Part shown: positions 4,460 to 21,279 of the stretch, one piece after another | Position numbering within the stretch: position 1 is the stretch's first letter | How the letters are laid out: every line of letters begins with the position of its first letter | Source of the DNA: a virus | IMG/VR virus record: IMGVR_UViG_3300018914_000001 | Location: 62,001 to 126,000 of that record | Reading direction: 5' to 3' (one strand) | DNA length: 64,000 bases | Program-made: the position numbers and the translations under genes | The notes under the pieces: generated by a model | The model's input: only the letters and a program-made list of their open reading frames with translations | The model's database searches: none | What the model was told of the DNA's origin: nothing

Positions 4460-4553
4460 TTTCAGAACACTCCTTCAACAAGTTTAATTCCTATTTTGAT
4501 TAAACTGCTCATCTAAGCCCCATAGTTTTCTATGAGGCTTAGTCAACAGTCAA

Positions 4554-6830
4554 TCACATTACAGCATCTGTTGCGCTTTCTACAGGCAAATTTTGCTCTC
4601 CATCAGGATCAATGTCGCCTTCCCATTGGTCTTCAGTCAGCCCCATTTCTTCTACGAATCGAGAGATTCCGTAACCCTTGCCATTGAAGTATTGAACACT
4701 AGAGATGTTGACTAGTTGTTCGCCACGTGTAACCGCGACATAAGCTAGGTTGCGCTCAGATTCGACAGCCAAGTCACCTTCCTCAATAACCTTGTAGTGC
4801 GGGAGCAATCCTTCACTCATGCCTACTGCGAACACTGCTTTAAACTCCAAGCCTTTGGACTTGTGAATGGTCATTAACTGCACACCATTAATGTCTTCCT
4901 TACGCTTAGAGGTCATTTGGTCAATGTAATCAAGAAACTCGTGAATATCATCGAAGCGAGACATTGCATGTTTTAGTGTTTCAATGTTAGCTAACTGAGT
5001 GTTGTCTTCATCGTCAGACTCTTCATCATCTTGTTCAGTGAAATAGTCTCTAAAGCCAACCTCCTCTAGCAAATAGTCGATAGCCTCTTCAGGAGATTTA
5101 CTTTCATCGTTAACGATAAGGCGAAGCCCCTCAATAGCTTCTTTGAGCTTGGATACTCCTTTCTTCCAATTTTCTAGCACCCAATGCTTTTCATGCTTAA
5201 CAAGTTCCATGCCAATGTAATACTTTTTCTTGGTAGCTTTAACAGCATTTAAAAACTCTTGCCCAAGGAACCTGTTGCGGCTGTCATTTTTATCTTCAAA
5301 CTGAGGGGTGTTGTAAACGTAAAGAAAGGCCAAGTTGTCATTCGGATTGACCGCCAATTTAAGATAATTGACAATCGTTTTGACCTCTTTGCGTTCATAG
5401 AAGCTCATGCCGCCATGAATGACGTAAGAGATACCCCTAGAGATTAACTCATTCTCAAACGCCACGCATTGCGCGTTTGTACGGTAAAGAATGACTTGAT
5501 CTTTTAGCTCAATGCCGTTTTTATCATTGAGCAGTTCAACTTCTTCAACTACTCCTGCCGCTTCCTCTTGTTCATCATAATACTCTTTGAAGCTAACCAC
5601 TTTGTCATCGCCCTGTTTGTGAGGAATAAGACGTTTCGGAATGCGGAACGTGTTATTCTCAATGAGCATGTTAGCTCTGTTAAGAATATCTGGCATTGAG
5701 CGGTAGTTATTTTCAAGAGGAATTTGAGTAAGTTCAACCTCTTTGTTGTAGCCGAGTTGCTTTAAGTAAAGATTCATAAACTCATTGAACTTGATAAACA
5801 TTTCTGGTTTAGCACCTCTAAAGCGGTACATTGATTGGTCATCGTCTCCAACAATTTGAAGGTGCATCTTAGGGTATGCAAGCATGATTGCCAGCTTGTA
5901 TTGTAAGAGGTTATTGTCTTGTGTCTCATCTACCATGATGTACTGATACTGCGCTTGATAGGATTCAAGACTTTTCCTGTTACTTTCAAACAGATTGACT
6001 AAATTAAAAATCAGGTCATCCAAGTCCATGCACTGGCATTCCCATTTTTTATTTTCATATGCCTGATACATGTCAATGTAGTGAGCCATTAGAGGATTGG
6101 TAGCGTGTCGATTGGTAAACTCGATAGCGTCAATACCCTCATTTTTTGCAAGCCCAATCACCCTAAGGAATTGAGGAATTTTAGTACGTTCTAAACGTTG
6201 ACGTTGCTCATCATCTAAGCCGCTGGATTTGAGGAGTGCATTTTTGCAGTCTTGTACGAGCTTACGTTGCTTCCAGCCCATTACAAGCTCACCCACAATA
6301 TCACCCTTAGCTTTACCGCTTTCACCTTTGCCTTTAGTGAATACCGCCGCCAAATGATGTTTGGTTTCCTTGTATTCTCTAGCCAGAATACGATAGGCGA
6401 TAGAGTGAGTAGTGCCCATTGTAATATGGCTAATTGCCGCTGGAGAGATGATTTTACTTAAACGTTCTTTGATCTCTTCGGCGGCTTTTTTGGTGAATGT
6501 GGTCGCAAGAATGGCAGAAGGGTGAATGCCAAGGCATTCAACCATAAAGCCAATTCTGTTAACCATGACAGTGGTTTTTCCAGAACCAGCAACAGAGGTG
6601 ATTTGTACTGCCGCCTGTACTGTAGTTACTGCCTTGAATTGAGAAGGGTTGAGCTTCGACAGGCGTTCAATCCACTTGTCTTTCAACTCATCCCATAAAG
6701 GCGCAAGCCCTGACTTGGCGCGTTCAGTATCCACGTGCGTCCAGAACTCTTCCCAAGACAGCCACTGAATAGGTTCTCTTCCTTCAATGAACGCCTTCTC
6801 ATTGAACTTTTTGACGTTCTCCCAAAACAT
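4554..6830 (-). CDS. UvrD/PcrA-like superfamily 1 DNA helicase
   Basis: 758 aa, ATG at 6830 after AAGGAGTTGTTATA. SF1A helicase motifs are visible in order: Q-like motif NPSQFKAV (61-68), Walker A AGSGKTT (81-87), motif Ia TFTKKAAEEI, motif II DETQDNN (about 300), motif III VGDDDQSMYRFRGA, motif IV NNYRS, motif V HKSKGLEF and motif VI VAVTRGE. This family moves 3'->5' on single-stranded DNA using ATP, in repair or rolling-circle replication. It is slightly longer than PcrA, with an acidic insert (EQDDEESDDED). It has its own promoter (6884-6912) and ends at the first array stem-loop. Probably a replication or recombination helicase of the phage. Confidence 0.95.
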   Translation of the reverse strand: MFWENVKKFNEKAFIEGREPIQWLSWEEFWTHVDTERAKSGLAPLWDELKDKWIERLSKLNPSQFKAVTTVQAAVQITSVAGSGKTTVMVNRIGFMVECLGIHPSAILATTFTKKAAEEIKERLSKIISPAAISHITMGTTHSIAYRILAREYKETKHHLAAVFTKGKGESGKAKGDIVGELVMGWKQRKLVQDCKNALLKSSGLDDEQRQRLERTKIPQFLRVIGLAKNEGIDAIEFTNRHATNPLMAHYIDMYQAYENKKWECQCMDLDDLIFNLVNLFESNRKSLESYQAQYQYIMVDETQDNNLLQYKLAIMLAYPKMHLQIVGDDDQSMYRFRGAKPEMFIKFNEFMNLYLKQLGYNKEVELTQIPLENNYRSMPDILNRANMLIENNTFRIPKRLIPHKQGDDKVVSFKEYYDEQEEAAGVVEEVELLNDKNGIELKDQVILYRTNAQCVAFENELISRGISYVIHGGMSFYERKEVKTIVNYLKLAVNPNDNLAFLYVYNTPQFEDKNDSRNRFLGQEFLNAVKATKKKYYIGMELVKHEKHWVLENWKKGVSKLKEAIEGLRLIVNDESKSPEEAIDYLLEEVGFRDYFTEQDDEESDDEDNTQLANIETLKHAMSRFDDIHEFLDYIDQMTSKRKEDINGVQLMTIHKSKGLEFKAVFAVGMSEGLLPHYKVIEEGDLAVESERNLAYVAVTRGEQLVNISSVQYFNGKGYGISRFVEEMGLTEDQWEGDIDPDGEQNLPVESATDAVM

Positions 6831-6883
6831 TATAACAACTCCTTTTTGTACGGTCTGATGGGCATAGCATCCCCAATGTTTCT

Positions 6884-6912
6884 ATTGTACTATACCCTCC
6901 TGATTATTGCAA
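6884..6912 (-). promoter_or_regulatory. Promoter for the UvrD-like helicase gene
   Basis: On the minus strand: TTGCAA, 17 nt, TACAAT. It sits about 55 nt upstream of the helicase start, inside the spacer after the ParB-like gene. Confidence 0.65.
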
Positions 6913-6938
6913 GGAATATTTAGCGAAATTGCTTGCTA

Positions 6939-6969
6939 AATAGCACCCACCATTTAGATGAGTGCTATT
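6939..6969 (-). repeat. Hairpin after the ParB-like gene
   Basis: AATAGCAC and GTGCTATT form an 8-bp stem just past the TGA of the 143-aa gene. It lacks both the array consensus arms and a U-tract. Confidence 0.5.
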
Positions 6970-6978
6970 AATAAGCAA

Positions 6979-7410
6979 TCAGTGTTGGCTATTTAGAAGC
7001 GCAATCATTTCTTCTAACTCTTCCTCTTTTATGTGATAGATGCAAAAATAAAATTCATCATTGATGTCATTGCCATACTTGATAATAGCTTTTAAGCGAT
7101 TGTAACCACTTACAAGAACGAATTTATTTCTGTCTTCATTGTAAGCAAAGTGTATATCAGGAGTGATAGGGTATCCATTTCGTCTTAATTCTATCAACTC
7201 CTGAAGTTCTTTTTCAGGAGGCAGGGCATGTTGTAATAACTCTTTTGCTGATTCTACATCATCGAAGCCCATTTTTTCTAGCAGACTTTTTACTTGAGAG
7301 TAGTGAACATGAGAGCTGTAAACAAGCATATCTTCTTTAGATAAGCGAAAGTTAATCCTAAATTTAATACCATCAATCTCATAGAACTTTTTGATTTGGT
7401 TATCTTTCAT
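6979..7410 (-). CDS. ParB/Srx-fold-like protein, 143 aa
   Basis: ATG at 7410 after AAGGAGTGTTGGCAA. Residues about 68-110 match the ParB/sulfiredoxin nucleotide-binding core: an 'ELI..RRNGYPITPDI' strand-helix, then FVLVSGYNRLKAI (97-109), which aligns with the G-x-(N/R)-R-x-x-A box of ParB-like proteins. It lacks a helix-turn-helix or dimer domain, so it is not a standard partition ParB. It is the gene directly downstream of the stem-loop holding the best parS site (7455-7470). A diverged relative lies at 10162-10584. Function uncertain. Confidence 0.6.
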   Translation of the reverse strand: MKDNQIKKFYEIDGIKFRINFRLSKEDMLVYSSHVHYSQVKSLLEKMGFDDVESAKELLQHALPPEKELQELIELRRNGYPITPDIHFAYNEDRNKFVLVSGYNRLKAIIKYGNDINDEFYFCIYHIKEEELEEMIALLNSQH

Positions 7411-7435
7411 TTGCCAACACTCCTTTTGCTATTGA

Positions 7436-7489
7436 TAACTGCTCAATTCCACATTGTTTCACGTGAAACAATGTGGTGTTCAACAGTCA
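7436..7489 (-). repeat. Array stem-loop carrying a perfect parS palindrome
   Basis: The apical stem reads CCACAT then TGTTTCACGTGAAACA then ATGTGG. The common basal arms (TAACTGCTCAAT, GTTCAACAGTCA) flank it. Confidence 0.85.
7455..7470. promoter_or_regulatory. parS-type ParB (Spo0J) binding site 1
   Basis: TGTTTCACGTGAAACA matches the Bacillus parS consensus TGTTNCACGTGAAACA at all 16 positions. Host ParB (Spo0J) loads CTP-dependent clamps at this sequence. Confidence 0.8.
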
Positions 7490-7491
7490 TA

Positions 7492-7656
7492 TTAAGAACT
7501 TAGTGTAACGCTTTTATGCTCTTTCCAATCCTTGTATTCAAAGGGGTATCTTTTACATGCTCTTTCAAATTTTTCCCTTGCCTCCTCTTCTGTGTCTGCC
7601 ATACAAAAATCAACAGCAACTTTTTTACTAGTGACTGCCTTCCACCATTTTGACAT
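7492..7656 (-). CDS. Hypothetical 54-aa protein
   Basis: ATG at 7656, 3 nt after the stop of the lipoprotein gene and preceded by AAGGGGTTGGTG. MSKWWKAVTSKKVAVDF... followed by an acidic helix (DTEEEAREKFERACK). It shares a cassette with the lipoprotein: no stem-loop lies between them. Function unknown. Confidence 0.6.
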   Translation of the reverse strand: MSKWWKAVTSKKVAVDFCMADTEEEAREKFERACKRYPFEYKDWKEHKSVTLSS

Positions 7657-7659
7657 AAA

Positions 7660-7830
7660 TCACCAACCCCTTCCAGATTTGTATTTGCCATCCTGTACAG
7701 ATTTGCAGATAGCGGCATCATATCCTGCGTCTCTACACTTACGGTAGCTATCGTTGTGATTGCCACTGCACCCTGCCAGCAGGATAGCCGCAACGCTAAT
7801 GATGACAACGAACTTAGAGAGCTTTTCCAT
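7660..7830 (-). CDS. Small lipoprotein, 56 aa
   Basis: ATG at 7830 after AGGAGTGTGTTAAC. Short basic N-terminus, hydrophobic stretch FVVIISVAAILLAGC ending in a LAGC lipobox, so Cys21 would be lipidated and the 36-aa remainder displayed outside the membrane. The mature part has two further Cys residues (KCRDAG, AICKS). Small phage lipoproteins can block superinfection; that role here is inference. Confidence 0.75.
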   Translation of the reverse strand: MEKLSKFVVIISVAAILLAGCSGNHNDSYRKCRDAGYDAAICKSVQDGKYKSGRGW

Positions 7831-7968
7831 GTTAACACACTCCTAGTTAAATTTGTAGTCATAAGCCGATAGTCCCCATTCTATTCCAGAATCAGTAGCT
7901 ATATACCTACGTCTGCAAAATTAACTGCTCAATCGAACAGCATTATACAACGCTGTTCTGTTCAACAG

Positions 7969-8250
7969 TCAAGAGAATCGCGCAGGAATTTGATTCAATG
8001 CATACATAACGAGATTGTAAATGTCCACGTTGCCTTCAGACGGTTCGATGTCCCAACCTCTATCGTAGTTGCATACATTCTCTATCTGCAACTTAGAAAC
8101 CCTTCCATTATCAATACCAAACATTGAACCAATATCAAACACTTTAGCAGAAAATTTAATTCCATTTACATTACCGCTAACCCAATTCGACTTAGAATCG
8201 AAATAAAGATTAATGATGTTACCGTTTACTTCGATAGTTTGAGTTATCAT
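7969..8250 (-). CDS. Hypothetical 93-aa protein
   Basis: ATG at 8250 after AAAGGAGTGTTTATA; an in-frame ATG further upstream lies in the stem-loop and lacks a ribosome site. Beta-rich (ITQTIEVNGNIINLYFDSK). No recognised family. Confidence 0.7.
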   Translation of the reverse strand: MITQTIEVNGNIINLYFDSKSNWVSGNVNGIKFSAKVFDIGSMFGIDNGRVSKLQIENVCNYDRGWDIEPSEGNVDIYNLVMYALNQIPARFS

Positions 8251-8302
8251 TATAAACACTCCTTTAATTTTTATTTGAGCTATTAACTGCTCAATCTTGC
8301 AC

Positions 8303-8318
8303 TGTTCCACATGGAACA
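8303..8318. promoter_or_regulatory. parS-like site 2 (degenerate)
   Basis: TGTTCCACATGGAACA differs from the Bacillus parS consensus at two positions (A for G in the CG core, G for A). It is the tip of stem-loop 8284-8338. Confidence 0.45.
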
Positions 8319-8334
8319 GTGCAATGTTCAACAG

Positions 8335-8517
8335 TTAGGGCTTTTCTTGGCTCTCAGCAATCAACTCTGAGAGCGGGCGAACAGGGATAATCAGCAAACT
8401 CCCATCTCTTCGCATGTCAGTCTTGTATTGACCGCCGCCCAACTGCTTGTTGATGGCTTCCAAGTCTACAGAGGCAGTACCATCAGGAGTAAACTTTACA
8501 AAGTCCATTTTCTCCAT
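8335..8517 (-). CDS. Hypothetical 60-aa protein
   Basis: ATG at 8517 after AAAGGAGTGTTAAAT. Its TAA stop lies in the basal arm of the next stem-loop. Sequence MEKMDFVKFTPDGTASVDLE..., with a C-terminal IIPVRPLSELIAESQ helix. Unknown function. Confidence 0.7.
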   Translation of the reverse strand: MEKMDFVKFTPDGTASVDLEAINKQLGGGQYKTDMRRDGSLLIIPVRPLSELIAESQEKP

Positions 8518-8604
8518 ATTTAACACTCCTTTTATTTTTGGTAACAGTATTAACTGTTCCATATACTAGGCGTTAACATAGCAGTTAACGCCTGTTAGCA
8601 ACAG

Positions 8605-8856
8605 CTAATTTTGTTTTTTGTAGAACTCCTCTAATTCTTCATCATAGTTTGACTCTACCCATTCAAGAATACAGTAACCCCCTTCCTCTATAATGGACTC
8701 TGAAGGGAAATATTGATCTTCACTTCTGTTATCTAAAGTGAAAATAACAACATTTGTCTTTTTATCAGACACCACTAGTTTTTTATATTCGAACCAACCC
8801 ACTTTGCAATACTGATATTCAACTTTAATTTTATCTTTAAATTTCCATTCGATCAT
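8605..8856 (-). CDS. Hypothetical acidic 83-aa protein
   Basis: ATG at 8856 after AAAGGAGCTAATCTT. Beta-rich N-terminal half, strongly acidic C-terminus (WVESNYDEELEEFYKKQN). Acidic mini-proteins in early phage regions often inhibit host enzymes; that is only a possibility here. Confidence 0.7.
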   Translation of the reverse strand: MIEWKFKDKIKVEYQYCKVGWFEYKKLVVSDKKTNVVIFTLDNRSEDQYFPSESIIEEGGYCILEWVESNYDEELEEFYKKQN

Positions 8857-8934
8857 AAGATTAGCTCCTTTATATTTTGTTAACTGCTCAATCGTACCCT
8901 CTCACTAATAGCAGAAAAGGGTACTGTTCAACAG

Positions 8935-9168
8935 TTAAAAAGGAAGGCAATTGCATCCTTGCGTCCCTTTGCAATGCTCACCCCAACATTTATTAACGTT
9001 CGCTGGCGGCTTAGGGTGTATGCAGTTAAACTTAAAAGCAACATGTTCATACTTGACGTAAAAGGGTACGCCGCGCCTTTTCCTGCTCTTTTTGTACTCT
9101 AAGTCAGTCATTCCATTACTGCCTACTTCCTCCTCACCCATCAGTTCCCAATGTCTCCAATCGCGCAT
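8935..9168 (-). CDS. Hypothetical Cys-rich-tail protein, 77 aa
   Basis: ATG at 9168 after AAAGGCGGTTGTTAAT. The last 30 residues contain four Cys and two His (CIHP, KCWGEHCKG, CNC), possibly one metal site. The N-terminal half is basic (KKSRKRRGV). Confidence 0.65.
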   Translation of the reverse strand: MRDWRHWELMGEEEVGSNGMTDLEYKKSRKRRGVPFYVKYEHVAFKFNCIHPKPPANVNKCWGEHCKGTQGCNCLPF

Positions 9169-9291
9169 ATTAACAACCGCCTTTCAGGGTCATTGTTACC
9201 AACTTCGATTTTTTTTAACCATTTAGTCTCCTCCTTTACTTTAATTTAACCACTCAATCGCCCTCATCCTGTAGATGAAGGCTGTCAATGG

Positions 9292-9528
9292 TTAAAGGTA
9301 TCTACGAGTGCAAAACTCTACTCTTTTTAATACTTCTTCTAAGGCAGATGTATAGCCAGCAAAAACAGGACTATCATTCAACTGTCTTAACGTATAACGA
9401 ATTTCGATTAAATAATGAAATGCCACATCACCACTGATATGCCCCGCATTAACATCCTTTGAAATACTATCTATTCGCTCATTGTAGATTCGTGCCAATT
9501 CAACTAAAGCATCTGCCATATTTTTCAT
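9292..9528 (-). CDS. Hypothetical helical 78-aa protein
   Basis: ATG at 9528 after AAGGAGTGACTAAGT. Predicted all-helical (ALVELARIYNERIDSISKDV...). No known motif. Confidence 0.7.
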   Translation of the reverse strand: MKNMADALVELARIYNERIDSISKDVNAGHISGDVAFHYLIEIRYTLRQLNDSPVFAGYTSALEEVLKRVEFCTRRYL

Positions 9529-9622
9529 ACTTAGTCACTCCTTAAAAGGTTACTTTCATAGAGTTTAACTGCTCAATCGAGTGCTATGGTTTACATAGCA
9601 CTCTGTTCAACAGTTAAAGTCT

Positions 9623-9826
9623 TTACCGTTGCCTTTCTGGTAAATGAACCTGCTCCATTCCAAGCTGAATGGTTTGTTCAATAGTAACAGAGACTTTCAC
9701 ACTTCCGTCTCTGTAGAGGCGAATTGTGTCGCCTCCTTCAAACCATAGCTCGATATAGTCAAGTGCCTGATGTGTTTTTTGCAGGGTTTTACCTTCAAAG
9801 GTATTGATTCCTACTTCTTTTGCCAT
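9623..9826 (-). CDS. Hypothetical 67-aa protein
   Basis: ATG at 9826 after AGGAGTGATAAACA. Mostly beta (YIELWFEGGDTIRLYRDGSV) with a helical tail. No recognised family. Confidence 0.65.
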   Translation of the reverse strand: MAKEVGINTFEGKTLQKTHQALDYIELWFEGGDTIRLYRDGSVKVSVTIEQTIQLGMEQVHLPERQR

Positions 9827-9911
9827 TGTTTATCACTCCTAGTTTAAATTTAACTGCTCAACTGAGTACCTTATATTGTAAGGTACTCTATCAGCGGTCA
9901 ATATAGAGTCC

Positions 9912-10088
9912 TTAAATTAGGTTGTGTTCTTTTGCGATGCTTGCCACGTCTTCCATACTTTGTTGAGACATATATACACATGACTCTCCTTTCTCTACTC
10001 TGTACTCTCTTGTCTCTATATCTTGTGAGACTAAGCACTCTCCATTGTTATACCATCTTTCAATAATCTTTTGAATTAACTCTTCCAT
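9912..10088 (-). CDS. Hypothetical 58-aa protein
   Basis: ATG at 10088 after AGGAGGAAGGTTGA. MEELIQKIIERWYNNGECL... with a C-terminal helix (SMEDVASIAKEHNLI). Flanked by array stem-loops at 9850-9900 and 10113-10165. Unknown function. Confidence 0.65.
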   Translation of the reverse strand: MEELIQKIIERWYNNGECLVSQDIETREYRVEKGESCVYMSQQSMEDVASIAKEHNLI

Positions 10089-10161
10089 TCAACCTTCCTC
10101 CTTGTTTGTAAATTTAACTGCTCAATGAACCGCCTTAACTTATAAGGCGGTCTATCAACAG

Positions 10162-10584
10162 CTAACCGTTAAGAAGTTTGAATAGTGCCTCTTCATTCAC
10201 ATCTGTAGTATAGATGTGAATGTGAATGTTATGATTGATAAGCACATCTTTAAAACTTTCGTGAACTGTCAATTCATCCCCTTCCATAAAAGTGTATTGA
10301 CCTAGACTAAGAATGGCATTGAGACTTATTACACCCTCTAGCAACGTATATCGGTTGCTGATAGTGTTGTATGTGTAAACGATATCAATACTCAATGGCT
10401 CTCTTGCTTCGCGAATCCATTTCTGAACTTTTTCGTATTTCACAATATTAGTAGCCTGAATGTCGCTTCGCTCTGTCGGAAGCCCCAACTGTTGCACTAG
10501 CGGAAGCACATAGGGATGCAGGATAGAAGTCATGAAATGATTCTTTTCAATTTGCACAAATTCAGCTACATTGTTTTTAAACAT
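10162..10584 (-). CDS. Diverged ParB/Srx-fold-like protein, 140 aa
   Basis: ATG at 10584 after AAGGAGTGTTGACA. Residues about 53-91 (VQKWIREAREPLSIDIVYTY, then YTLLEGVISLNAI) parallel the core of the 143-aa protein at 6979-7410, including hydrophobic spacing and the 'G...L.AI' helix. The Arg of the ParB box is missing, so nucleotide binding may be lost. Possibly a duplicated, decayed paralogue. Confidence 0.5.
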   Translation of the reverse strand: MFKNNVAEFVQIEKNHFMTSILHPYVLPLVQQLGLPTERSDIQATNIVKYEKVQKWIREAREPLSIDIVYTYNTISNRYTLLEGVISLNAILSLGQYTFMEGDELTVHESFKDVLINHNIHIHIYTTDVNEEALFKLLNG

Positions 10585-10659
10585 TGTCAACACTCCTTAG
10601 TTGTTTTTAACTGCTCAATTGAACACCCTAGAGTATAAGGTGCTCTGTTCAACAGTCAG

Positions 10660-10851
10660 TTATGCTTGGTAAATCTTCAATTGTTCTTCAAATTTGTAGA
10701 CACGTTCCATGCATTCATAATACTTTTGCAACCAGAAGTCTTTATTCTGATAATGCGGACTTTCAAACCTTTTAAGGCAACTTTCTGCATTTCTCAATGC
10801 TAATTCAATATTTTGTTCGAGTATGCAAATTTCAACGTACCATCTGTTCAA
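10660..10851 (-). CDS. Hypothetical helical 63-aa protein, TTG start
   Basis: TTG at 10851 follows AAGGGGTTGATTTAA; no ATG is available in frame nearby. Helical throughout, with aromatic residues (WLQKYYECMERVYKFEEQL). Flanked by array stem-loops. Confidence 0.6.
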   Translation of the reverse strand: MNRWYVEICILEQNIELALRNAESCLKRFESPHYQNKDFWLQKYYECMERVYKFEEQLKIYQA

Positions 10852-12864: not shown

Positions 12865-12865
12865 T

Positions 12866-14686: not shown

Positions 14687-14911
14687 TTACGCAAAGTCTA
14701 ATTCATAATCATACAAAGAGAAAGGAATGTTGGTTCCATCTTCTGTTTGCAAGTCATAGAGCGCACATCCTGCGGTTTCATCGAATCCTCTGTGTTCATC
14801 TCGACTAGTTGCCACACTTGCTACGGTAAGAACCATACCCATGTATTCTTCATAGTTTTCATTGTCACTGTCAATTACCACTTCATCACCAACATTAAAG
14901 TTTTGAATCAT
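14687..14911 (-). CDS. Small beta-barrel-like protein, 74 aa
   Basis: ATG at 14911 after AGGGGGTGTTATCAAA. NFNVGDEVVIDSDNENYEEY followed by MVLTVASV resembles KOW/SH3-like small barrels. The in-frame ATG 69 nt upstream is inside the stem-loop and is rejected. Confidence 0.6.
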   Translation of the reverse strand: MIQNFNVGDEVVIDSDNENYEEYMGMVLTVASVATSRDEHRGFDETAGCALYDLQTEDGTNIPFSLYDYELDFA

Positions 14912-14983
14912 TTTGATAACACCCCCTAATTTTATTAACTGCTCAATTAAACACCCTAGCTTGTAGGGTGTTCTGTTCAACAG

Positions 14984-15220
14984 TTAAAATTGGTTTATTT
15001 TTTTCCAAAATTTTTCAAAGTCTTCATCAACCTTATCCTGATATTCCCATTTAAACAGTGTGTGGAATTTTTGCTTGGTTATTACCTCACTTCCGTTCTC
15101 CAAGAAAACCATCACCATTACTTCTTCTTCTCCTTGCACATCTTCAGCGTAATATTCACCACCAATTACAATAAAACTTTCGCCAACTAAAGTCGATTGT
15201 TGAGCAATAACTTTATACAT
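14984..15220 (-). CDS. Hypothetical 78-aa protein
   Basis: ATG at 15220 after AAAGGGGTGTTGGT. Beta strands (GESFIVIGGEYYAEDVQGEE, then VMVMVFLENGSE). Similar in size and fold pattern to the 74-aa neighbour; homology not shown. Confidence 0.65.
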   Translation of the reverse strand: MYKVIAQQSTLVGESFIVIGGEYYAEDVQGEEEVMVMVFLENGSEVITKQKFHTLFKWEYQDKVDEDFEKFWKKINQF

Positions 15221-15290
15221 ACCAACACCCCTTTTTGTTAAGTTGACTGTTCAATTAGTTACAGGAGTATTCCTGTAACCTGTTCAACAG

Positions 15291-15593
15291 TCATATAGTC
15301 TTTCTGCACAACCCTTTCACAATACACGTGTTACACATTGCAACGCCTTCCTCAGTGAGACTTCCACATTCGCAATTGCGTGTAATTGTCTTAATAAGGC
15401 TGTCAATTGCCGCTTCAGCCTTACTAAGACCTCTGTAAGTAGTTTCTGTGATAATGGTTCTATCTTTTCTCAGGTGTCTTACGATCAACGTCTTAGGGCT
15501 AGGATTAACCACTATAACATTTTCAATTTGAGGATGTACCCACGCGCTTCCAAGCTGAACGAATCCGTTTTCTCCTAGCTTTTCTTTGAGCAT
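15291..15593 (-). CDS. Protein with C-terminal Cys cluster, 100 aa
   Basis: ATG at 15593 after AAGGAGTGATAAAT. The C-terminal 28 residues hold six Cys (NCECGS, MCNTC, GLCRK), likely one or two metal sites. The N-terminal part is basic and beta-rich. Confidence 0.7.
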   Translation of the reverse strand: MLKEKLGENGFVQLGSAWVHPQIENVIVVNPSPKTLIVRHLRKDRTIITETTYRGLSKAEAAIDSLIKTITRNCECGSLTEEGVAMCNTCIVKGLCRKTI

Positions 15594-15661
15594 ATTTATC
15601 ACTCCTTGTAATTGTTAACTGCTCAATCGCCCACACTGTTTAAATGTGAGCTGTTCAACAG

Positions 15662-15931
15662 TTATTTACGTTTCGGCTTGCCTTCCTCATCGTATGTGTC
15701 AGGATCAGCGCCAGTGCAATTCCAACCAAACATGGAACCCATCTCCATAGCCGCTCTTTGGGCTTTAGTAACGCCCAAGGTAGCGTTTAATTCATCCGCT
15801 GGGCGTTGATCTTTGCTTTTCCAGAAGCCCATTTCACCGCGCTTCAGCAGGATAATTTCACCTGTACTGCGAAGCGTTCCGTAACAAAACTCAGGCAATT
15901 TGTGTTCAATTTCATGATAAAAAACAGTCAT
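15662..15931 (-). CDS. Hypothetical 89-aa protein
   Basis: ATG at 15931 after AAAGGGGTGTTTTAA. Contains a helix (ADELNATLGVTKAQRAAMEM), then a Pro/Lys-rich tail. Unknown. Confidence 0.65.
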   Translation of the reverse strand: MTVFYHEIEHKLPEFCYGTLRSTGEIILLKRGEMGFWKSKDQRPADELNATLGVTKAQRAAMEMGSMFGWNCTGADPDTYDEEGKPKRK

Positions 15932-16010
15932 TTAAAACACCCCTTTAATGTATTAGCTTGATTAACAAGCTCAATCGCACCTACTTAATAAGTAGGTGCT
16001 GTTCAGCAAG

Positions 16011-16316
16011 TTAAATATCATATAGATCAATTGCATTATTAGGATTAAGAATTTTAATTTGAGTCCTCACCTGTTCATGGCATCCATTGCCCGCATTGCG
16101 CCAAAATTGGAAGGTTGCATACTCTTTTAGTCTTCTCCAATCAACTTTCTCAATTGTATGATAAGATTCATTGAATAGAATATCAATGTCTTCTTTTGGG
16201 ATAGTATCGCACGTTAACATATAACTGAGAATGTTTTGAGCAAAATCCTTGTCCTCAAACAGCACTAACCCATGAATGGCTGTTCTCATGTTGCGATAAT
16301 TAATAGCATAAATCAT
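16011..16316 (-). CDS. Hypothetical helical 101-aa protein
   Basis: ATG at 16316 after AAGGGGTGCTGAAT. All-helical, with two Cys (LTCDTIPKED, GNGCHEQ). No recognised family. Confidence 0.65.
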   Translation of the reverse strand: MIYAINYRNMRTAIHGLVLFEDKDFAQNILSYMLTCDTIPKEDIDILFNESYHTIEKVDWRRLKEYATFQFWRNAGNGCHEQVRTQIKILNPNNAIDLYDI

Positions 16317-16393
16317 ATTCAGCACCCCTTTTCACCTTGTGTTTTAACAAGCTCAATTAGAAGGTTAACGCTGTTAACCTTCTTATCAGCATG

Positions 16394-16633
16394 TTAATTA
16401 ATGTAAGCCAGCGAAACTTCAATTTCTTTGCTGTTGAGGACTTGAATTTTCTTATCGAACATTTCCACGTCATCTTCATAGCTTTTCATCCCTGCCATGA
16501 CAACGCGCTGGACAGCTTTAGGAAGACACGAAAATTGTGTAGTAAGAATAAACGATTCAAGCTCTTCAATATCACGCTCTAAGCCCGCCTTGCTCTTAAT
16601 CATGTTGTACTTTTTGTCACGTTGAAATTCCAT
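16394..16633 (-). CDS. Hypothetical helical 79-aa protein
   Basis: ATG at 16633 after AGGGAGAGTGCTAAAT. Basic start (EFQRDKKYNMIKSK), then helices. Unknown. Confidence 0.65.
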   Translation of the reverse strand: MEFQRDKKYNMIKSKAGLERDIEELESFILTTQFSCLPKAVQRVVMAGMKSYEDDVEMFDKKIQVLNSKEIEVSLAYIN

Positions 16634-16709
16634 ATTTAGCACTCTCCCTAGAATTGGTAGCTTAATTGCTCCATTGGTGGACACTTTAACAGTGTTCACC
16701 TAGCAACAA

Positions 16710-16835
16710 TTAATGATTGTAATGCTGTTTAATATCTTTCAATACGGGCACAACATACTTCTTGAGGAGGTATAGGATGCCGTGTCCAATACCCATTCCA
16801 GCAACCCATGATGCAATTGCTACAACGTCATTCAT
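16710..16835 (-). CDS. Single-pass membrane peptide, 41 aa
   Basis: ATG at 16835 after GGAGGAATTTCAA, overlapping the stop of the 26-aa gene (ATGA). Hydrophobic segment VVAIASWVAGMGIGHGILYLL, then a basic tail (KKYVVPVLKD). Holin-sized, but an early-region location argues for another role. Confidence 0.6.
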   Translation of the reverse strand: MNDVVAIASWVAGMGIGHGILYLLKKYVVPVLKDIKQHYNH

Positions 16836-16912
16836 TTGAAATTCCTCCATATGCGTTTAATAGCGCGTTTAATTTTGTCGAAGAGGGTTTTACGTTTGCC
16901 TATCACTTTCAT
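16832..16912 (-). CDS. Very basic 26-aa peptide
   Basis: ATG at 16912 after AGGAGCTACAGC. MKVIGKRKTLFDKIKRAIKR, then IWRNFK: 11 Lys or Arg in 26 residues, amphipathic. It is coupled by ATGA to the 41-aa membrane peptide, so the two are co-made. Confidence 0.5.
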   Translation of the reverse strand: MKVIGKRKTLFDKIKRAIKRIWRNFK

Positions 16913-16924
16913 GCTGTAGCTCCT

Positions 16925-17026
16925 CTATTTAATGATAATTGCACCGTTAACATAAAGATTTTTAAAATCTTGTTGTCGTTTCCACTTGGAGGCAAGTAAA
17001 ATAAGTTGCTTCCTAGTTAACAACAT
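16925..17026 (-). CDS. Hypothetical 33-aa peptide
   Basis: ATG at 17026 after AAAGGAGGTGCAA. Helical, basic (LLTRKQLILLASKWKRQQD). It starts the three-peptide cassette running down to 16,710. Confidence 0.5.
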   Translation of the reverse strand: MLLTRKQLILLASKWKRQQDFKNLYVNGAIIIK

Positions 17027-17097
17027 TTGCACCTCCTTTTATTGTATTAACTAACACCATCAGAGGCTAGATAAAACTCTAGCCTCTTAGCTGTTAG

Positions 17098-17421
17098 TTA
17101 GTCTTCTAAATAGTAGTTTGTCGGCACGTTTCCAACTAATGTAACATGATTCCCATTGGTATCATGCCAAATATACCATTTCACATGTTGTTCTAACGTC
17201 TCACCCTTGATTAAAAGCTCTTGCGGATCAATATTAGAATCGTGCGGCAAATAGATAGTCGCGTGACCATCACATTGCACCTCATCCCAATCTATGTTCC
17301 CCTCCTCATCCATTGGCATTTCACCGTTATAAATGGCTTTTTCACAATGTTCGCAAAAATGCGGTAAACCCTCCATATTTTCCCAATTAAGGTGATTACC
17401 ATTTGTGAATTTAGCTTCCAT
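17098..17421 (-). CDS. Hypothetical acidic 107-aa protein with CxxC
   Basis: ATG at 17421 after AAGGAGTGTTTTAAA. HFCEHCEKAIYNGEM near residue 22 gives one Cys pair with His, possibly half of a metal site. Acidic overall. Confidence 0.7.
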   Translation of the reverse strand: MEAKFTNGNHLNWENMEGLPHFCEHCEKAIYNGEMPMDEEGNIDWDEVQCDGHATIYLPHDSNIDPQELLIKGETLEQHVKWYIWHDTNGNHVTLVGNVPTNYYLED

Positions 17422-17507
17422 TTTAAAACACTCCTTTAAGTGTAGTTAGTGTTCATATTAATTAACACCATTAAACAGCCTATCAACTAGGCTGTTTTAG
17501 CTGTTAA

Positions 17508-17813
17508 TTACCAAAATTGAGCCATTTTAATTCGTCTTTTATACTCTTCTGCTTTAATACAACTGTGTGCACCTCTCTCTTTCATCCATCTTTCAACCAC
17601 TTCCCTTATATATTTAGGTATGGTTTCCCACGTCTTGCCCGCTGTAATACCTTCATAAACACCCATAGGCTCAGATGTAAGGGCGATAGTGGGCACATCT
17701 TTGACGATTATAAAACCATAGTCAGACCTGCCATACTTATGGTATCTAGCAATGGTTACTTGACCATTAAGAACACAATATACACACCAGTACTTATTTT
17801 CGAATAAGATCAT
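17508..17813 (-). CDS. Hypothetical 101-aa protein
   Basis: ATG at 17813 after AAGGGAGTGTTTTAA. N-terminus beta-rich (NKYWCVYCVLNGQVTIARYH), C-terminus basic and helical. Unknown. Confidence 0.7.
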   Translation of the reverse strand: MILFENKYWCVYCVLNGQVTIARYHKYGRSDYGFIIVKDVPTIALTSEPMGVYEGITAGKTWETIPKYIREVVERWMKERGAHSCIKAEEYKRRIKMAQFW

Positions 17814-17892
17814 TTAAAACACTCCCTTGGAATTGTGAATTAACAACTCAATCAGCCTTAACATATTGCTGTTAAGGCTTATCAGTAGTTAA

Positions 17893-18306
17893 TTAACCAT
17901 AAATAAGCTCACCAAACAGGGCATATTGGAAAATGCAGTCATACGTGGTAGCGTCTGCATTTTCTAGGTCACAATCGAAAGGGCGTTCCATAGCATTCAG
18001 TTTAATGCCATCAAGGAGCTTTTTCTTTGTAAGCCGCAAGTCCTTTCCATCGTACTCTTCCACGTCACGGAAAACCACACTCTTGCGATTCAAAAGCAGA
18101 TGAGTTATCCATTGAGAGAGCGGAATACCCTTTGGCTTATCATCCCATTCCTTGCGGTCATTCTGAATTTGCGCCCAATAGTTAGTTCCACCCTCTACCG
18201 CGCCACAGATAACATTGTCAATGTCGTTTGCTGTCAAATTCAGAACGCTCTTTCCGTTGCGGACAGTTGCAATCACCTTTTCGGAATCGAAGTTGATAAG
18301 TGGCAT
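17893..18306 (-). CDS. Hypothetical 137-aa protein
   Basis: ATG at 18306 after AAGGAGTGTTTTAT. One of the largest proteins of the array. The N-terminal part is strand-rich; PKGIPLSQWITHLLLNRK is a helix. No recognised motif. Confidence 0.7.
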   Translation of the reverse strand: MPLINFDSEKVIATVRNGKSVLNLTANDIDNVICGAVEGGTNYWAQIQNDRKEWDDKPKGIPLSQWITHLLLNRKSVVFRDVEEYDGKDLRLTKKKLLDGIKLNAMERPFDCDLENADATTYDCIFQYALFGELIYG

Positions 18307-18382
18307 ATAAAACACTCCTTTAGTATTTTAGTTAACACCATTAGACATATGATAAACTCATATGCCTTAGCTGTTAACTTTA

Positions 18383-18586
18383 TCAAACAGTGATGGACTC
18401 TATTTCCTCAAACTTAAATGTAAACTCCTGTACACCTTCTACCGTTTCATAGGCTAGTGTGACTGAATTTTTACAAATATCTAATACGTCACCATGCACA
18501 CATGCGCCGTCTCCATGAATAGTAACCATGCGACCATTTGCATATGCTTCTACAATCATGTTTAAGATATTCTCATATTGACTCAT
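18383..18586 (-). CDS. Small LSm/SH3-like barrel protein, 67 aa
   Basis: ATG at 18586 after AGGGGTGTTTAATAT. An N-terminal helix then GRMVTIHGDGACVHGDVLDI and strands ending FKFEEIESITV recall the helix-plus-barrel layout of Hfq/LSm or ribosomal-type small barrels. An RNA-binding role is a guess from the fold pattern. Confidence 0.55.
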   Translation of the reverse strand: MSQYENILNMIVEAYANGRMVTIHGDGACVHGDVLDICKNSVTLAYETVEGVQEFTFKFEEIESITV

Positions 18587-18656
18587 ATATTAAACACCCC
18601 TTTAGTAATAATAATTAACACCATTGGAGCCACTATTGGTTAGTGACTCTTAGCTG

Positions 18657-18830
18657 TTAATTAAATCTTCCCTTATCCAATGCCCTTTGAAGATTGCGAG
18701 AGCGTCCCCTATCATGTCTAGCCGCCCCCAATTCACAACGAATTATAAAGGAGATGATGTAAGCGTAGTCATCAAATCGCTTATTAACACGAAAATCACG
18801 TTTAAATCTAGCTAGATCGCGCATTTGCAT
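18657..18830 (-). CDS. Hypothetical basic 57-aa protein
   Basis: ATG at 18830 after AAGGAGCATATCATA. Arg-rich (RFKRDFRVNKRFDDYAYI..., RHDRGRSRNLQRA). Likely nucleic-acid contacting. Confidence 0.6.
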   Translation of the reverse strand: MQMRDLARFKRDFRVNKRFDDYAYIISFIIRCELGAARHDRGRSRNLQRALDKGRFN

Positions 18831-18903
18831 TATGATATGCTCCTTTAATTATTAATTTAAATGCACAATTGCGCCCACTCATAGAGTGGACGCTGTTACG
18901 CAT

Positions 18904-19116
18904 TTAATTTTCATCATACCACACTTGACACTCTTCCCAAGTCACAAGGTCACACATTTCCTCATTCTGGTAAAACATCATGCGGATTCGATAGGCAATA
19001 CCTTCCACAAGATACCATTCATGTAATGATAAGGCGATTTGAAGAAGGTGAATTACCTCAGATTTACTCCATCTCTTTTTGGTTTTAAGAGATTCAATTA
19101 ACTGCTGTTTATTCAT
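18904..19116 (-). CDS. Hypothetical helical 70-aa protein
   Basis: ATG at 19116 after AAAGGAGTGTTACAC. Helical, aromatic C-terminus (DLVTWEECQVWYDEN). Unknown. Confidence 0.65.
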   Translation of the reverse strand: MNKQQLIESLKTKKRWSKSEVIHLLQIALSLHEWYLVEGIAYRIRMMFYQNEEMCDLVTWEECQVWYDEN

Positions 19117-19191
19117 GTGTAACACTCCTTTAGAGTAACATGTTTAACATGCTCTATTGAGCGAGTAATTTTTACTCACTCTAACAACATG

Positions 19192-19329
19192 CTAAATCAT
19201 GTCTCCATGACAGCCTATGTCATACTGTTCATAGCACTCTTTGCATTCAACACGTACTGCATCCTCATCAACAAGAATGATTCCATCGTGACAACCACAA
19301 TCGCATATGAACAAAATTCTAAAATCCAT
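19192..19329 (-). CDS. Zinc-binding mini-protein, 45 aa
   Basis: ATG at 19329 after AAGGAGTGTTGTAAA. CDCGCHDG near residue 9 and CKECYE near 30 plus a late Cys/His (GCHGD) form at least one zinc site. Confidence 0.65.
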   Translation of the reverse strand: MDFRILFICDCGCHDGIILVDEDAVRVECKECYEQYDIGCHGDMI

Positions 19330-19412
19330 TTACAACACTCCTTAATCAATTGTAGTAAGAGGTTAATTCCTCCAGTGGTTACATTAACAACGTTAATGTA
19401 ACCTAGCAGGAA

Positions 19413-19577
19413 TTAGAATTTGTCTTGTGAATCAATCCATTCTTCAGCCTCTTGCACACTGTCGCATTCCCATTCTAATTGCCCATCTTTGAAAATCCAG
19501 ATGGGATAACTAGCCTCATCACGTGCGGTAGTTTCTTTGATAATGTGACCTTTGTATTGTTTAATTTTCTTTGCCAT
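19413..19577 (-). CDS. Hypothetical 54-aa protein
   Basis: ATG at 19577 after AAAAGGAGTGGTTAAAC. MAKKIKQYKGHIIKETTARD then PIWIFKDGQLEWECDSVQEA and an acidic helix: a beta-beta-alpha pattern seen in many small phage proteins. Confidence 0.65.
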   Translation of the reverse strand: MAKKIKQYKGHIIKETTARDEASYPIWIFKDGQLEWECDSVQEAEEWIDSQDKF

Positions 19578-19646
19578 GTTTAACCACTCCTTTTAATTAA
19601 CTGCTCAATTGCCCATTACAGTATAGCTGTAATGGGCTATCAACGG

Positions 19647-19973
19647 TTAATTGGAGAAAATTTTCATGTAATAATATTCGTAAGTGAATTTAATTTTCTC
19701 TGTCACAACTCTACGCATATCGAGCATAGAATTAGACATCCTGTTATCTTCCAAGAGCTTAACAGCCTTCATCCCTTCCGCGATTTCCCAAAGAGAATTT
19801 GCAAGACGTTTTTCCTCTTGCAACATGTTATCCCATTTCTCTTCAGAAAGAGGAGAGTTGTTGAATGTACTTAACATTTCACTGAACATGTTTACATAGA
19901 CATCTTCAAAAATATTTTTTCCACCAAATTTAAAATTAAATTCAGCAATGTTAATATTAACTTTGTTAGACAT
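19647..19973 (-). CDS. Hypothetical 108-aa protein
   Basis: ATG at 19973 after AAAGGAGTGTTTTGT. Helical middle (EEKWDNMLQEEKRLANSLWE). The longer in-frame start 42 nt upstream has no ribosome site. Confidence 0.65.
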   Translation of the reverse strand: MSNKVNINIAEFNFKFGGKNIFEDVYVNMFSEMLSTFNNSPLSEEKWDNMLQEEKRLANSLWEIAEGMKAVKLLEDNRMSNSMLDMRRVVTEKIKFTYEYYYMKIFSN

Positions 19974-20059
19974 ACAAAACACTCCTTTAGTGTTAGTGTT
20001 AGTAGCATTTAACATGCTCTAGTGGATGGTTTACGTGTGTAAACCATCCTAACAGCAGG

Positions 20060-20386
20060 TTAAACAGAGAGTTCGAAATAGTTCTTGTTTTCGTTTTCGT
20101 CATTGCAAACAATGATTAACATGTTGTTTTCAGTGATACTGAAGTGGCTGACAGGCAGATACAAACCTTCATAAATAAGAATGTATTCATTGGTAGCGTT
20201 GTACATAGCGTAGCCATCAGAAGATGTATAAGCCAAGCCAAAAAAGTCAGACATGGAAGTAGTAAAACGATACCCATGTTCCTCTTCCATCCATTCAGCT
20301 AACATTGCCTCAATGCCGTGAAGTTCAATGTTGCTCATATCTTTTTTGAAGTTAACATTAAGTTGTTCAATTTTTCTGATTTCCAT
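20060..20386 (-). CDS. Hypothetical 108-aa protein
   Basis: ATG at 20386 after AAGGGGTGTTATTAA. Central region with aromatic strands (YTSSDGYAMYNATNEYILIY). Unknown. Confidence 0.65.
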   Translation of the reverse strand: MEIRKIEQLNVNFKKDMSNIELHGIEAMLAEWMEEEHGYRFTTSMSDFFGLAYTSSDGYAMYNATNEYILIYEGLYLPVSHFSITENNMLIIVCNDENENKNYFELSV

Positions 20387-20459
20387 TTAATAACACCCCT
20401 TAATTTTATTTAAAAGCTCAATCACTTACTACAGCGCGACTGTAGTAAGCTATCAGCAA

Positions 20460-20630
20460 TTAAATAATAGTCATCATATGCGGTGCAACAGCAACGCGCC
20501 GCATGTAGGTGTTGTTAGATTCTAACCTAATTTCTTCTGCTACGCTCTCATGCTCCCAAGATTCAGTGTGTTCAGCGTAGTTTTCAGCGTCAATTGCTTC
20601 AATCAATTCATCTTCAAATGTGTATACCAT
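20460..20630 (-). CDS. Hypothetical acidic 56-aa protein
   Basis: ATG at 20630 after AGGAGTGATTTTAA. Acidic N-terminal 40 residues (DELIEAIDAENYAEHTESWE) then a basic, hydrophobic tail. Confidence 0.6.
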   Translation of the reverse strand: MVYTFEDELIEAIDAENYAEHTESWEHESVAEEIRLESNNTYMRRVAVAPHMMTII

Positions 20631-20700
20631 TTAAAATCACTCCTAATTAGTTTTAAAAGCAAAATGACCGCTACCAGTGTTGATAGCGGCTGTTTCACTT

Positions 20701-20937
20701 TTAATACTGTTTAATACCTGCTTCATTGAGCCATTGAAACAGTTCCCAAGGGTAGTTAAATTCCATTTGAAAAGAACCTACTGTAGAATCATCGTCACTT
20801 AATTCTGTAAATACTGCTTTAATTCTTAACCCCTCATCTGTGAAGGCATCAATTTTAAATCTTTTATCAACTTCAGCTTGATAAAGTTGACCTGTAAATG
20901 AGAAGTTAAAAGCACCAGTCACGAATAAATGTTTCAT
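20701..20937 (-). CDS. Hypothetical 78-aa protein
   Basis: ATG at 20937 after AAGGAGTGTGTTAAAT. Beta-rich body ending in an amphipathic helix (PWELFQWLNEAGIKQY). Unknown. Confidence 0.65.
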   Translation of the reverse strand: MKHLFVTGAFNFSFTGQLYQAEVDKRFKIDAFTDEGLRIKAVFTELSDDDSTVGSFQMEFNYPWELFQWLNEAGIKQY

Positions 20938-21008
20938 ATTTAACACACTCCTTAATGTGATTAACAGCAAAATTACTGCTACCAATGTTGATAGCAGTTG
21001 TTTCGATG

Positions 21009-21197
21009 TTAAGCGTTGTCTAATATCTCTAACAATTCTTGTAATACAAGTTTAAAATAAATACGTTCACTTACGACTGCCCGCCACTTCTTTGCCTCTC
21101 CTTCCATCTCCTTCTTCTCGCAAGAAAGGAGAAGAGATCGAGCAATTTCGATAGACTTACTTACATCGTCAATTTGTTTCATAAGATATTCTCTCAT
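21009..21197 (-). CDS. Helical 62-aa protein, first gene of the leftward array
   Basis: ATG at 21197 after AAGGAGTGTGTTAAAT. Fully helical (REYLMKQIDDVSKSIEIARS...). Upstream are the last stem-loop (21220-21276) and the large structured block; no coding sequence lies between it and 24,242. Confidence 0.65.
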   Translation of the reverse strand: MREYLMKQIDDVSKSIEIARSLLLSCEKKEMEGEAKKWRAVVSERIYFKLVLQELLEILDNA

Positions 21198-21279
21198 ATT
21201 TAACACACTCCTTAGTTGAGTTAAAGTGCTGTTGATGAGTTCCGTTTTAGAAACGCATTAACAGCCCATTAAATCAGGC

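What the first reader, a model, noticed from the sequence alone, without database searches (positions are those of the whole stretch)
4502..21276. 43-copy stem-loop/gene cassette array
Almost every small gene in 16.8 kb is followed by a two-part RNA stem-loop: conserved basal arms that include the stop codon, an apical stem whose sequence changes in each copy while staying paired, then AAGGAGTGTT and the next start. This is seen directly. The covarying apical stems say the structure matters, not the sequence. It resembles the promoter-stem-loop cassettes of T4-type phages but lacks visible promoters. Inference: exchangeable early-gene units and/or RNA processing, stability or translation-control elements.
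Basis: partly seen in the sequence, partly recalled or inferred. Interest (0 to 1): 0.88.

Follow-up and report, generated by a model that had tools for sequence, protein, structure and literature searches.

The report
Array of phage mRNA-processing hairpins
In this large phage almost every small gene of a 17-kb block is followed by an RNA hairpin built like the phage T7 signals that RNase III cuts, so the long message is probably chopped into separate single-gene mRNAs.

Summary
On the minus strand, about 4.5-21.3 kb, 43 intergenic hairpins lie between small genes; 42 fold as one composite structure: basal stem, usually a G-G mismatch, a variable pair, a small internal loop, a ~10-bp apical stem of free sequence, then a Shine-Dalgarno. 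Pairs covary (14 of 19 changed on both sides), and the G-U excess points to coding-strand RNA. Promoter and terminator signals are at background. Two related phages (G016, G020) carry such arrays with other arms but the same core (5'-G-P-Y-A / N-A-U-P'-G-3'); most other relatives searched do not. The architecture is that of RNase III processing signals: a descriptor finds four of five T7 early sites (none in ten shuffles), and a model trained only on the three arrays ranks five SP82G hairpins first in 20 kb, four with the core GCUA/NAUGG also found here. SP82 early mRNA is named a B. subtilis RNase III substrate. No RNase III domain (PF14622) was found in the phage, so a host enzyme is the likely cutter. 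Likely function: cutting a polycistronic message into monocistronic mRNAs. Cleavage is untested. New variant of a known kind: unusually dense, in a new lineage.

The parts
21220..21273 (-). first hairpin, divergent, upstream of first array gene
20959..21013 (-). hairpin, core AAACA/AATTT
20653..20704 (-). hairpin, core AAACA/CATTT
20410..20466 (-). hairpin
20008..20065 (-). hairpin
19595..19652 (-). hairpin, core GATA/AATTG
19364..19415 (-). hairpin
19143..19196 (-). hairpin, core GTTA/AATAG
18857..18907 (-). hairpin, core TAACA/AATTG
18612..18663 (-). hairpin, core GCTA/AATGG
18330..18379 (-). hairpin, core GCTA/AATGG
17838..17894 (-). hairpin, core GATA/GATTG
17459..17510 (-). hairpin, core GCTA/AATGG
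17048..17100 (-). hairpin, core GCTA/GATGG
16661..16714 (-). hairpin, core GCTA/AATGG
16344..16397 (-). hairpin, core GATA/AATTG
15961..16014 (-). hairpin
15616..15664 (-). hairpin, core GAACA/GATTG
15244..15293 (-). hairpin, core GAACA/AATTG
14935..14987 (-). hairpin, core GAACA/AATTG
14640..14689 (-). hairpin, core GATA/AATTG
14321..14372 (-). hairpin
14068..14116 (-). hairpin, AACA/GATT core without the G-G mismatch
13707..13754 (-). hairpin, GCTA type
13416..13469 (-). hairpin, core GAACA/AATTG
13120..13168 (-). hairpin, core TAACA/GATTA
12457..12511 (-). hairpin, core GACA/CATTG, parS-like apical stem
12146..12198 (-). hairpin, core GAACA/GATTG
11880..11930 (-). hairpin, core GAACA/AATTG
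11535..11585 (-). hairpin, core GAACA/GATTG
11194..11248 (-). hairpin, core GAACA/GATTG
10874..10924 (-). hairpin, core GAACA/AATTG
10606..10658 (-). hairpin, core GAACA/AATTG
10114..10165 (-). hairpin, core GATA/CATTG
9850..9901 (-). hairpin, core GATA/AGTTG
9564..9618 (-). hairpin, core GAACA/GATTG
9245..9296 (-). hairpin, core GACA/GATTG
8880..8938 (-). hairpin, core GAACA/GATTG
8549..8609 (-). hairpin, variant
8284..8337 (-). hairpin, core GAACA/GATTG, parS-like apical stem
7921..7971 (-). hairpin, core GAACA/GATTG
7435..7489 (-). hairpin, core GAACA/AATTG, parS-like apical stem
6927..6980 (-). weak extra member, core AATA/TATTT, between gene 6979-7410 and the helicase (not among the 43)
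4501..4552 (-). last hairpin, after the helicase gene
4554..6830 (-). UvrD-type helicase gene, in or next to the arrays of all three phages
6979..21206 (-). block of about 45 small ORFs (35-143 aa, hand-picked list) served by the hairpins

Best explanation
Each hairpin is an intercistronic RNase III processing signal of the phage T7 / phage SP82 type. A long minus-strand transcript is made; at each gene junction the RNA folds into two helices around a small internal loop, and host RNase III cuts, most likely once, on the 3' side of that loop (after the N-A-U, the T7 position as I recall it). The upstream mRNA keeps the apical hairpin as a 3' guard against exonucleases. The downstream mRNA begins with a short leader that places AAGGAG(T)GTT near its 5' end, where a bound ribosome guards it against 5' exonuclease. 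The stop codon in the 5' arm means a terminating ribosome holds the signal open until it leaves. The result is a set of independent single-gene mRNAs. Shown: structure, covariation, RNA-strand bias, position, a shared core in three arrays and in SP82G/SPO1, the same architecture in T7. Inferred: one long transcript, cleavage, its position and number, the enzyme, the stabilisation, the ribosome gating.
For: Covariation in the window and across three phages: 19 of 19 pairs changed on both sides, score 1.129 against 0.252 (rows picked by a pairing rule). Coding-strand fold: apical G-U 17 against A-C 1 in 21 copies picked by arm sequence (copies not independent); R1 scores up to 72 bits on the minus and at most 31.8 on the plus strand. 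Apical stem 9-12 bp in 33 of 33 parsed window copies, 10 bp in 20 (the parser imposes the lower bound, not the upper). T7 sites fold the same way; a strict architecture descriptor gives 4 hits in T7 500-7000, all RNase III sites (4 of 5), and none in 10 shuffles. T7 R1.1 has an asymmetric 4/5-nt internal loop and lies between genes 1.0 and 1.1 (PMC6121014 passage); GATA/NATTG here is also 4/5. R2, trained without SP82 and run with filters off, ranks five SP82G hairpins first of 20 hits in 20 kb (E 3.9e-5 to 0.033). R3 finds a T7 site not in its training, 36818-36866, at the junction of genes 18 and 18.5 (E 4.3e-7), though R3 was trained with four other T7 sites.
Against: No cleavage data, and the host is unknown. 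R2 did not find the T7 sites, and its filtered search missed SP82G and SPO1. The descriptor was written after the T7 folds were seen; its looser form gave 7 hits in T7, 3 of them not known sites. It also finds 0-5 strict hits per strand in four array-free relatives. 15 of 46 parsed elements (GAACA) have a 5/5, not a 4/5, loop, and 4 more have a 5-nt 5' side without the G-G mismatch. A strongly conserved core is more than RNase III is usually said to need (recalled). 43 of 50 records searched with R3 have no match, so the signal is not general in this phage group. How T7 R1.1 is cut is itself reported contradictorily, once or twice (PMC6993053 passage), and 34 of 73 mapped B. subtilis RNase III positions form paired cuts (PMC11780869 passages); paired cuts would remove the hairpin rather than leave it as a guard.
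Confidence: 0.76

Rival explanations
1. The hairpins are not cut. They act as passive insulators and 3' guards: they stop ribosomes sliding from one gene to the next and block 3' exonucleases, and the strong Shine-Dalgarno restarts translation.
For: Stop codon in the 5' arm in 31 of 43; next start 15-46 nt downstream in 41 of 43.
Against: Would not explain the conserved internal-loop core in unrelated arms or the match to T7 and SP82G hairpins.
Confidence: 0.12
2. The core is the binding site of a sequence-specific phage or host RNA-binding protein (antiterminator, translational regulator, or an RNase other than RNase III).
For: Core G-P-Y-A/N-A-U-P'-G conserved in three arrays while arms diverge.
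Against: 19 ORFs of this phage match G016 and/or G020 but none of four array-free relatives. The 7 that were annotated are a UvrD helicase, an HNH nuclease, TubZ and its small partner, a tail fibre protein, a thioredoxin and a cytidylyltransferase: no recognised RNA-binding protein, but 12 of 19 were not annotated. The same core occurs in distant SP82G/SPO1.
Confidence: 0.08
3. Mobile gene cassettes: the hairpins are recombination sites (integron attC-like) or promoter-stem-loop cassettes that let genes be exchanged.
For: One gene plus one hairpin per unit; gene content differs between the three arrays.
Against: Integrase at 34117-35151 is far below the curated cut-offs (best 55 bits against 220) and hits no integron-specific integrase model; one hit family is named tyrosine recombinase/integron integrase. 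Promoters at background; the G-U excess points to RNA; arm ends differ in G016/G020.
Confidence: 0.03
4. Ordinary intrinsic terminators.
For: Strong hairpins after genes; 5 of the 12 terminator-like matches in the region fall on array hairpins.
Against: 12 terminator-like matches against 9.3 +/- 3.0 in shuffles, so 38 of 43 hairpins have none.
Confidence: 0.01

Closest known systems
Phage T7 intercistronic RNase III processing signals (R0.3, R0.5, R1, R1.1, R1.3, R18.5)
   Same: Between genes; basal stem, a mismatch, one pair, 2x3 inner loop with 3' N-A-U, 9-10-bp apical stem in most of them. Core x-C-U-x/x-A-U-G-x of R0.3, R0.5 and R1.1 is close to the GCTA/AATGG copies here.
   Different: T7 has a handful of sites for E. 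coli RNase III; here 43 hairpins in 17 kb of a phage whose relatives infect Bacillota. The second basal mismatch of T7 R1.1 is usually absent here; the stop codon is usually in the arm here. Site names and positions recalled.
Phage SP82 / SPO1 hairpins (SP82 early mRNA: B. subtilis RNase III substrate)
   Same: Four hairpins with core GCTA/NATGG on the minus strand at 12604-13578 of SP82G, each before a purine-rich Shine-Dalgarno, and four in SPO1; plus a GTTA-type one in each.
   Different: Different arms, few copies. Four of the five SP82G hairpins lie between annotated genes; 13530-13578 overlaps an annotated gene start. That these are the published cleavage sites (Panganiban and Whiteley 1983; only its reference line was seen) is inference.
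SP82 5' stabiliser (polypurine sequence, Hue et al. 1995)
   Same: A review states that mutating the RBS of SP82 phage mRNA shortens its half-life (PMC7509114 passage); here a purine Shine-Dalgarno follows most hairpins.
   Different: Stability not measured here; primary paper not held.
Cluster K mycobacteriophage SAS/ESAS repeats
   Same: Repeat at start codons, about half with an inverted repeat upstream, in the non-structural half of the genome (PMC3203893 passages).
   Different: Authors found little support for an mRNA hairpin there; here the hairpin covaries.
T4-type promoter-early stem-loop (PeSL) cassettes
   Same: Stem-loops between early genes (recalled; paper not held).
   Different: No promoter excess here.

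Membership tests
T7-type RNase III processing signal | lies between genes of a multi-gene message | tested here: met
   position; that there is one message is inferred from one-strand packing and no promoter excess
T7-type RNase III processing signal | two helices around an asymmetric 4/5-nt internal loop | tested here: inconclusive
   met by the GATA/GCTA/GTTA/GACA copies; the 15 GAACA copies of 46 parsed elements are 5/5 (loop of R1.1)
T7-type RNase III processing signal | one descriptor recovers both sets above chance | tested here: met
   strict form: 4 in T7 early, 15 on own minus strand (12 at listed hairpins), 12 in G016 plus strand, 8 in G020 plus strand; shuffle means 0, 0.2, 0.2, 1.1; written after seeing T7
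T7-type RNase III processing signal | sequence-structure model of the arrays alone finds T7 sites | tested here: not met
   R2 found none in T7 500-7000; only R3, trained with four T7 sites, did
T7-type RNase III processing signal | cut by RNase III | not testable with these tools
   needs the enzyme or RNA ends
SP82/SPO1 hairpins | found by a model not trained on them | tested here: met
   filters off, SP82G 1-20000; the filtered whole-genome search had found none
SP82/SPO1 hairpins | identity with the published RNase III cleavage sites | not tested
   paper not seen
T4-type PeSL cassette | early promoter in each cassette | tested here: not met
   59 against 52.9 +/- 6.9 in the whole region, both strands; other promoter types not covered
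Intrinsic terminator | T run after the stem | tested here: not met
   12 against 9.3 +/- 3.0; 5 of 12 at array hairpins
Integron cassette array | integron integrase | tested here: not met
   the one integrase tested; no other recombinase was sought
Rfam families | match at gathering score | tested here: not met
   only tRNA in the window

The most novel reading that the evidence does not exclude
A single RNase III 'cut here' loop, purine-P-Y-N / N-A-U-P'-purine, is used by unrelated phages of E. coli (T7) and of Bacillota (SP82/SPO1, and this SPbeta-related group), and this lineage has placed it after nearly every gene of a 17-kb block. The stop codon in the arm makes processing depend on translation, and the apical stems are kept different so that neighbouring hairpins cannot mispair or recombine: a natural operon-to-monocistron converter.
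Probability: 0.35. Interest if true: 0.8.

Novelty: new variant of a known kind. Interest (0 to 1): 0.66.

Why it matters
It gives a testable sequence-structure rule for RNase III signals in Bacillota phages and links T7, SP82/SPO1 and an SPbeta-related group by one loop. It suggests that a phage can rely on host RNase III to run dozens of small genes as separate mRNAs, which predicts dependence on rnc. It also offers candidate parts for insulating genes in Gram-positive synthetic operons.

Tried and rejected
T4-type promoter cassettes and terminators: rejected. Integron-like cassettes: rejected mainly. Known Rfam family: none at gathering score. Phage-encoded RNase III: PF14622 not found in 14 of 14 phage records at E 0.001, while 8 of 14 control genomes rang; the other RNase III family models were not tried. 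Exact-arm pattern scan of viral contigs: 0 matches. A looser one gave 70 single-match loci; R1 scored 26 matches in them at E up to 1, and the 13 of these that I folded look like chance or coding matches. Helicase and cargo-gene scans found no array phage beyond G016 and G020. A possible single copy in G002 (R1 E 1.6e-4) was not found by R2 or R3. A single R2 hit in FADO (E 0.0096) looks like a terminator. G033:957-1008 (R3 E 2.6e-6) was not followed up. In the seven bacterial genomes only 118 of 1,776-2,847 candidates each were scored, so they are not well tested. Primary papers on SP82, T7 signals, RNase III and PeSL were sought and are not held.
Full report
WHAT IS THERE. The window is bases 62,001-126,000 of a 158,514-bp IMG/VR virus record. 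Its portal protein relates it to Brevibacillus phage Sundance, Alicyclobacillus phage KKP_3916, Bacillus phages FADO and vB_BcoS-136, and SPbeta-like Staphylococcus phages. On the minus strand, 21.3 down to 4.5 kb, about 45 small ORFs (35-143 aa, a hand-picked list) run head to tail, ending with a UvrD-type helicase. At the gene junctions lie 43 hairpins.

ANATOMY. Read in the coding direction: a basal stem, usually of about 8 pairs or more, with the stop codon in its first bases (31 of 43; within 12 nt before it in 9); a G-G mismatch (40 of the 46 parsed elements below); one or two pairs; a small internal loop; an apical stem of 9-12 pairs in the 33 parsed window copies (10 in 20 of 33) with a loop of 3-7 nt; the 3' half; a short linker; AAGGAGTGTT or a variant; the next start, 15-46 nt after the 3' arm in 41 of 43. 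Arms and apical stems vary. The core varies little: of 46 elements that a core parser accepted in three phages (34 in the window, 12 in the others; 10 of the 43 listed hairpins were not accepted), 13 are GATA/AATTG, 15 are GAACA/(A or G)ATTG and 4 are GCTA/AATGG; the other 14 are single variants. The parser itself asks for an A before the apical stem and [AG]T on the 3' side, so those letters are partly imposed. The second core position pairs across the loop and covaries (A-U, C-G, U-A).

IS IT REAL AND IS IT RNA? A sequence-blind scan finds 43 strong composite hairpins on the minus and 7 on the plus strand of the whole genome, against 1-2 in shuffles; 25 of those 43 are array hairpins. Covariation exceeds all 500 shuffles and all slid controls. 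In 21 copies chosen by arm sequence, apical G-U pairs outnumber A-C mismatches 17 to 1, which says that the coding-strand RNA is what folds; the copies are not independent, so the probability is only a guide. Model R1 finds 26 minus-strand copies at E below 1e-6, 21 of them its own training set, all inside the array.

RELATIVES. Fifty records (43 virus contigs and seven bacterial genomes with a related portal) were searched with R1: 9 had a match at E up to 1, and only two, the virus records G016 and G020, below 0.01. Reading parts of them showed the same layout (gene, composite hairpin, Shine-Dalgarno, gene) with other arms (for example ATTCAGTGA or AATTTTTGTAA) and another start context (AAAAGGATGATAA). 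The helicase lies at the end of the array in all three. One orthologous gene pair in G016 and G020, ending ...KEVRN, is followed by hairpins with unrelated apical stems but related basal arms. A joint alignment of 22 copies has all 19 pairs changed on both sides; these rows were picked by a parser that asks for pairing, so the percentage paired is circular, the variety of pairs less so. R2, built from it, rang in G000, G016 and G020 (partly on its own training rows) and weakly in FADO among 50 records. Scans of viral contigs with two genes of the array region found no further array phage.

WHAT IT IS. Folding the T7 early RNase III sites (positions recalled) gave nearly the same dot-bracket pattern for R0.3, R1 and R1.1; R0.5 and R1.3 came out in other registers. 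T7 R1.1 is described as a 60-nt RNA with an asymmetric 4/5-nt internal loop from between genes 1.0 and 1.1, with a primary site cut in vivo and a secondary one cut only in vitro (PMC6121014, passages); PMC4858673 (passages) says it is cleaved at a single bond; PMC6993053 (passages) says reports of one or two cuts conflict. The GATA/NATTG cores here are also 4/5. A strict descriptor gives 4 hits in T7 500-7000, all at RNase III sites, with none in ten shuffles, and three hits in the first 14 kb of SP82G, also none in shuffles. It was written after seeing the T7 folds; its looser form gave three extra T7 hits, and in whole SP82G and SPO1 the loose form alone is at background until the core is added. 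With the core, SP82G and SPO1 have four hairpins each, all GCTA/NATGG, the window's GCTA class, against means of 0.25 and 0.12 in shuffles. The cleanest test is R2, which had never seen SP82: with filters off it ranks five SP82G hairpins first among 20 hits in 20 kb; four lie between annotated genes and one overlaps an annotated gene start. The filtered search had missed them, and R2 does not find T7 sites. R3, which includes five SP82G/SPO1 and four T7 copies, finds a T7 site outside its training, at 36818-36866 at the junction of genes 18 and 18.5, and a further hairpin each in SP82G and SPO1. The literature seen names SP82 early mRNA as a B. subtilis RNase III substrate by title only, and a review says that SP82 mRNA half-life falls when its RBS is mutated (PMC7509114 passage).

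HOW IT WORKS (INFERRED). Host RNase III (PF14622 not found in 14 of 14 phage records) cuts after N-A-U on the 3' side of the loop. The upstream message keeps a 3' hairpin; the downstream one starts with a short leader and a strong ribosome site. A terminating ribosome would hold the basal stem open, so cutting may wait for translation to end. If the enzyme cuts both strands instead, as for 34 of 73 mapped positions in B. subtilis (PMC11780869, passages), the hairpin is removed and the 3' protection part fails, but the splitting of the operon remains.

NOVELTY. The kind is known. I saw no report of this density (a signal after almost every gene of a 17-kb block), this lineage or the shared loop in ten searches of the paper library. 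That is a limited open-access library, read here mostly as listings and passages, so this is not proof of absence.

Noticed in passing
window 7455-7470, 8303-8318, 12477-12492: Three apical stems hold sequences equal or close to the Bacillus parS site (consensus recalled): two fit the pattern exactly and are perfect palindromes, the third has one mismatch and is not; no other match with fewer than 3 mismatches in the window. Possible decoys for, or capture of, host ParB/Spo0J sites.
   Followed up: partly
window 6979-7410 and 10162-10593, minus strand: Two 143-aa proteins look by eye like small ParB N-terminal-type domains; neither hits PHROGs, the first not Pfam either (the second was not tried). 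One sits next to a parS-like hairpin.
   Followed up: no
window 21300-25800: ORF-poor region just upstream of the array with short repeated sequences by eye; candidate site of the array promoter and perhaps an origin.
   Followed up: no
window 27065-28491 and 33016-33909: TubZ-like GTPase with a small partner gene, and a replication-relaxation protein, suggesting plasmid-like maintenance.
   Followed up: no
window 41504-43293: Cluster of 14 ARAGORN tRNA calls, one with a four-base anticodon reading (41826-41900).
   Followed up: no
L007: A 26-kb contig carries a 100% identical portal protein, so the phage or a near relative was assembled more than once, unless it stems from the same sample.
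   Followed up: no
G033:C1:957-1008: A portal-related 46-kb contig has one hairpin that fits R3 (E 2.6e-6); possibly the edge of a fourth array.
   Followed up: no
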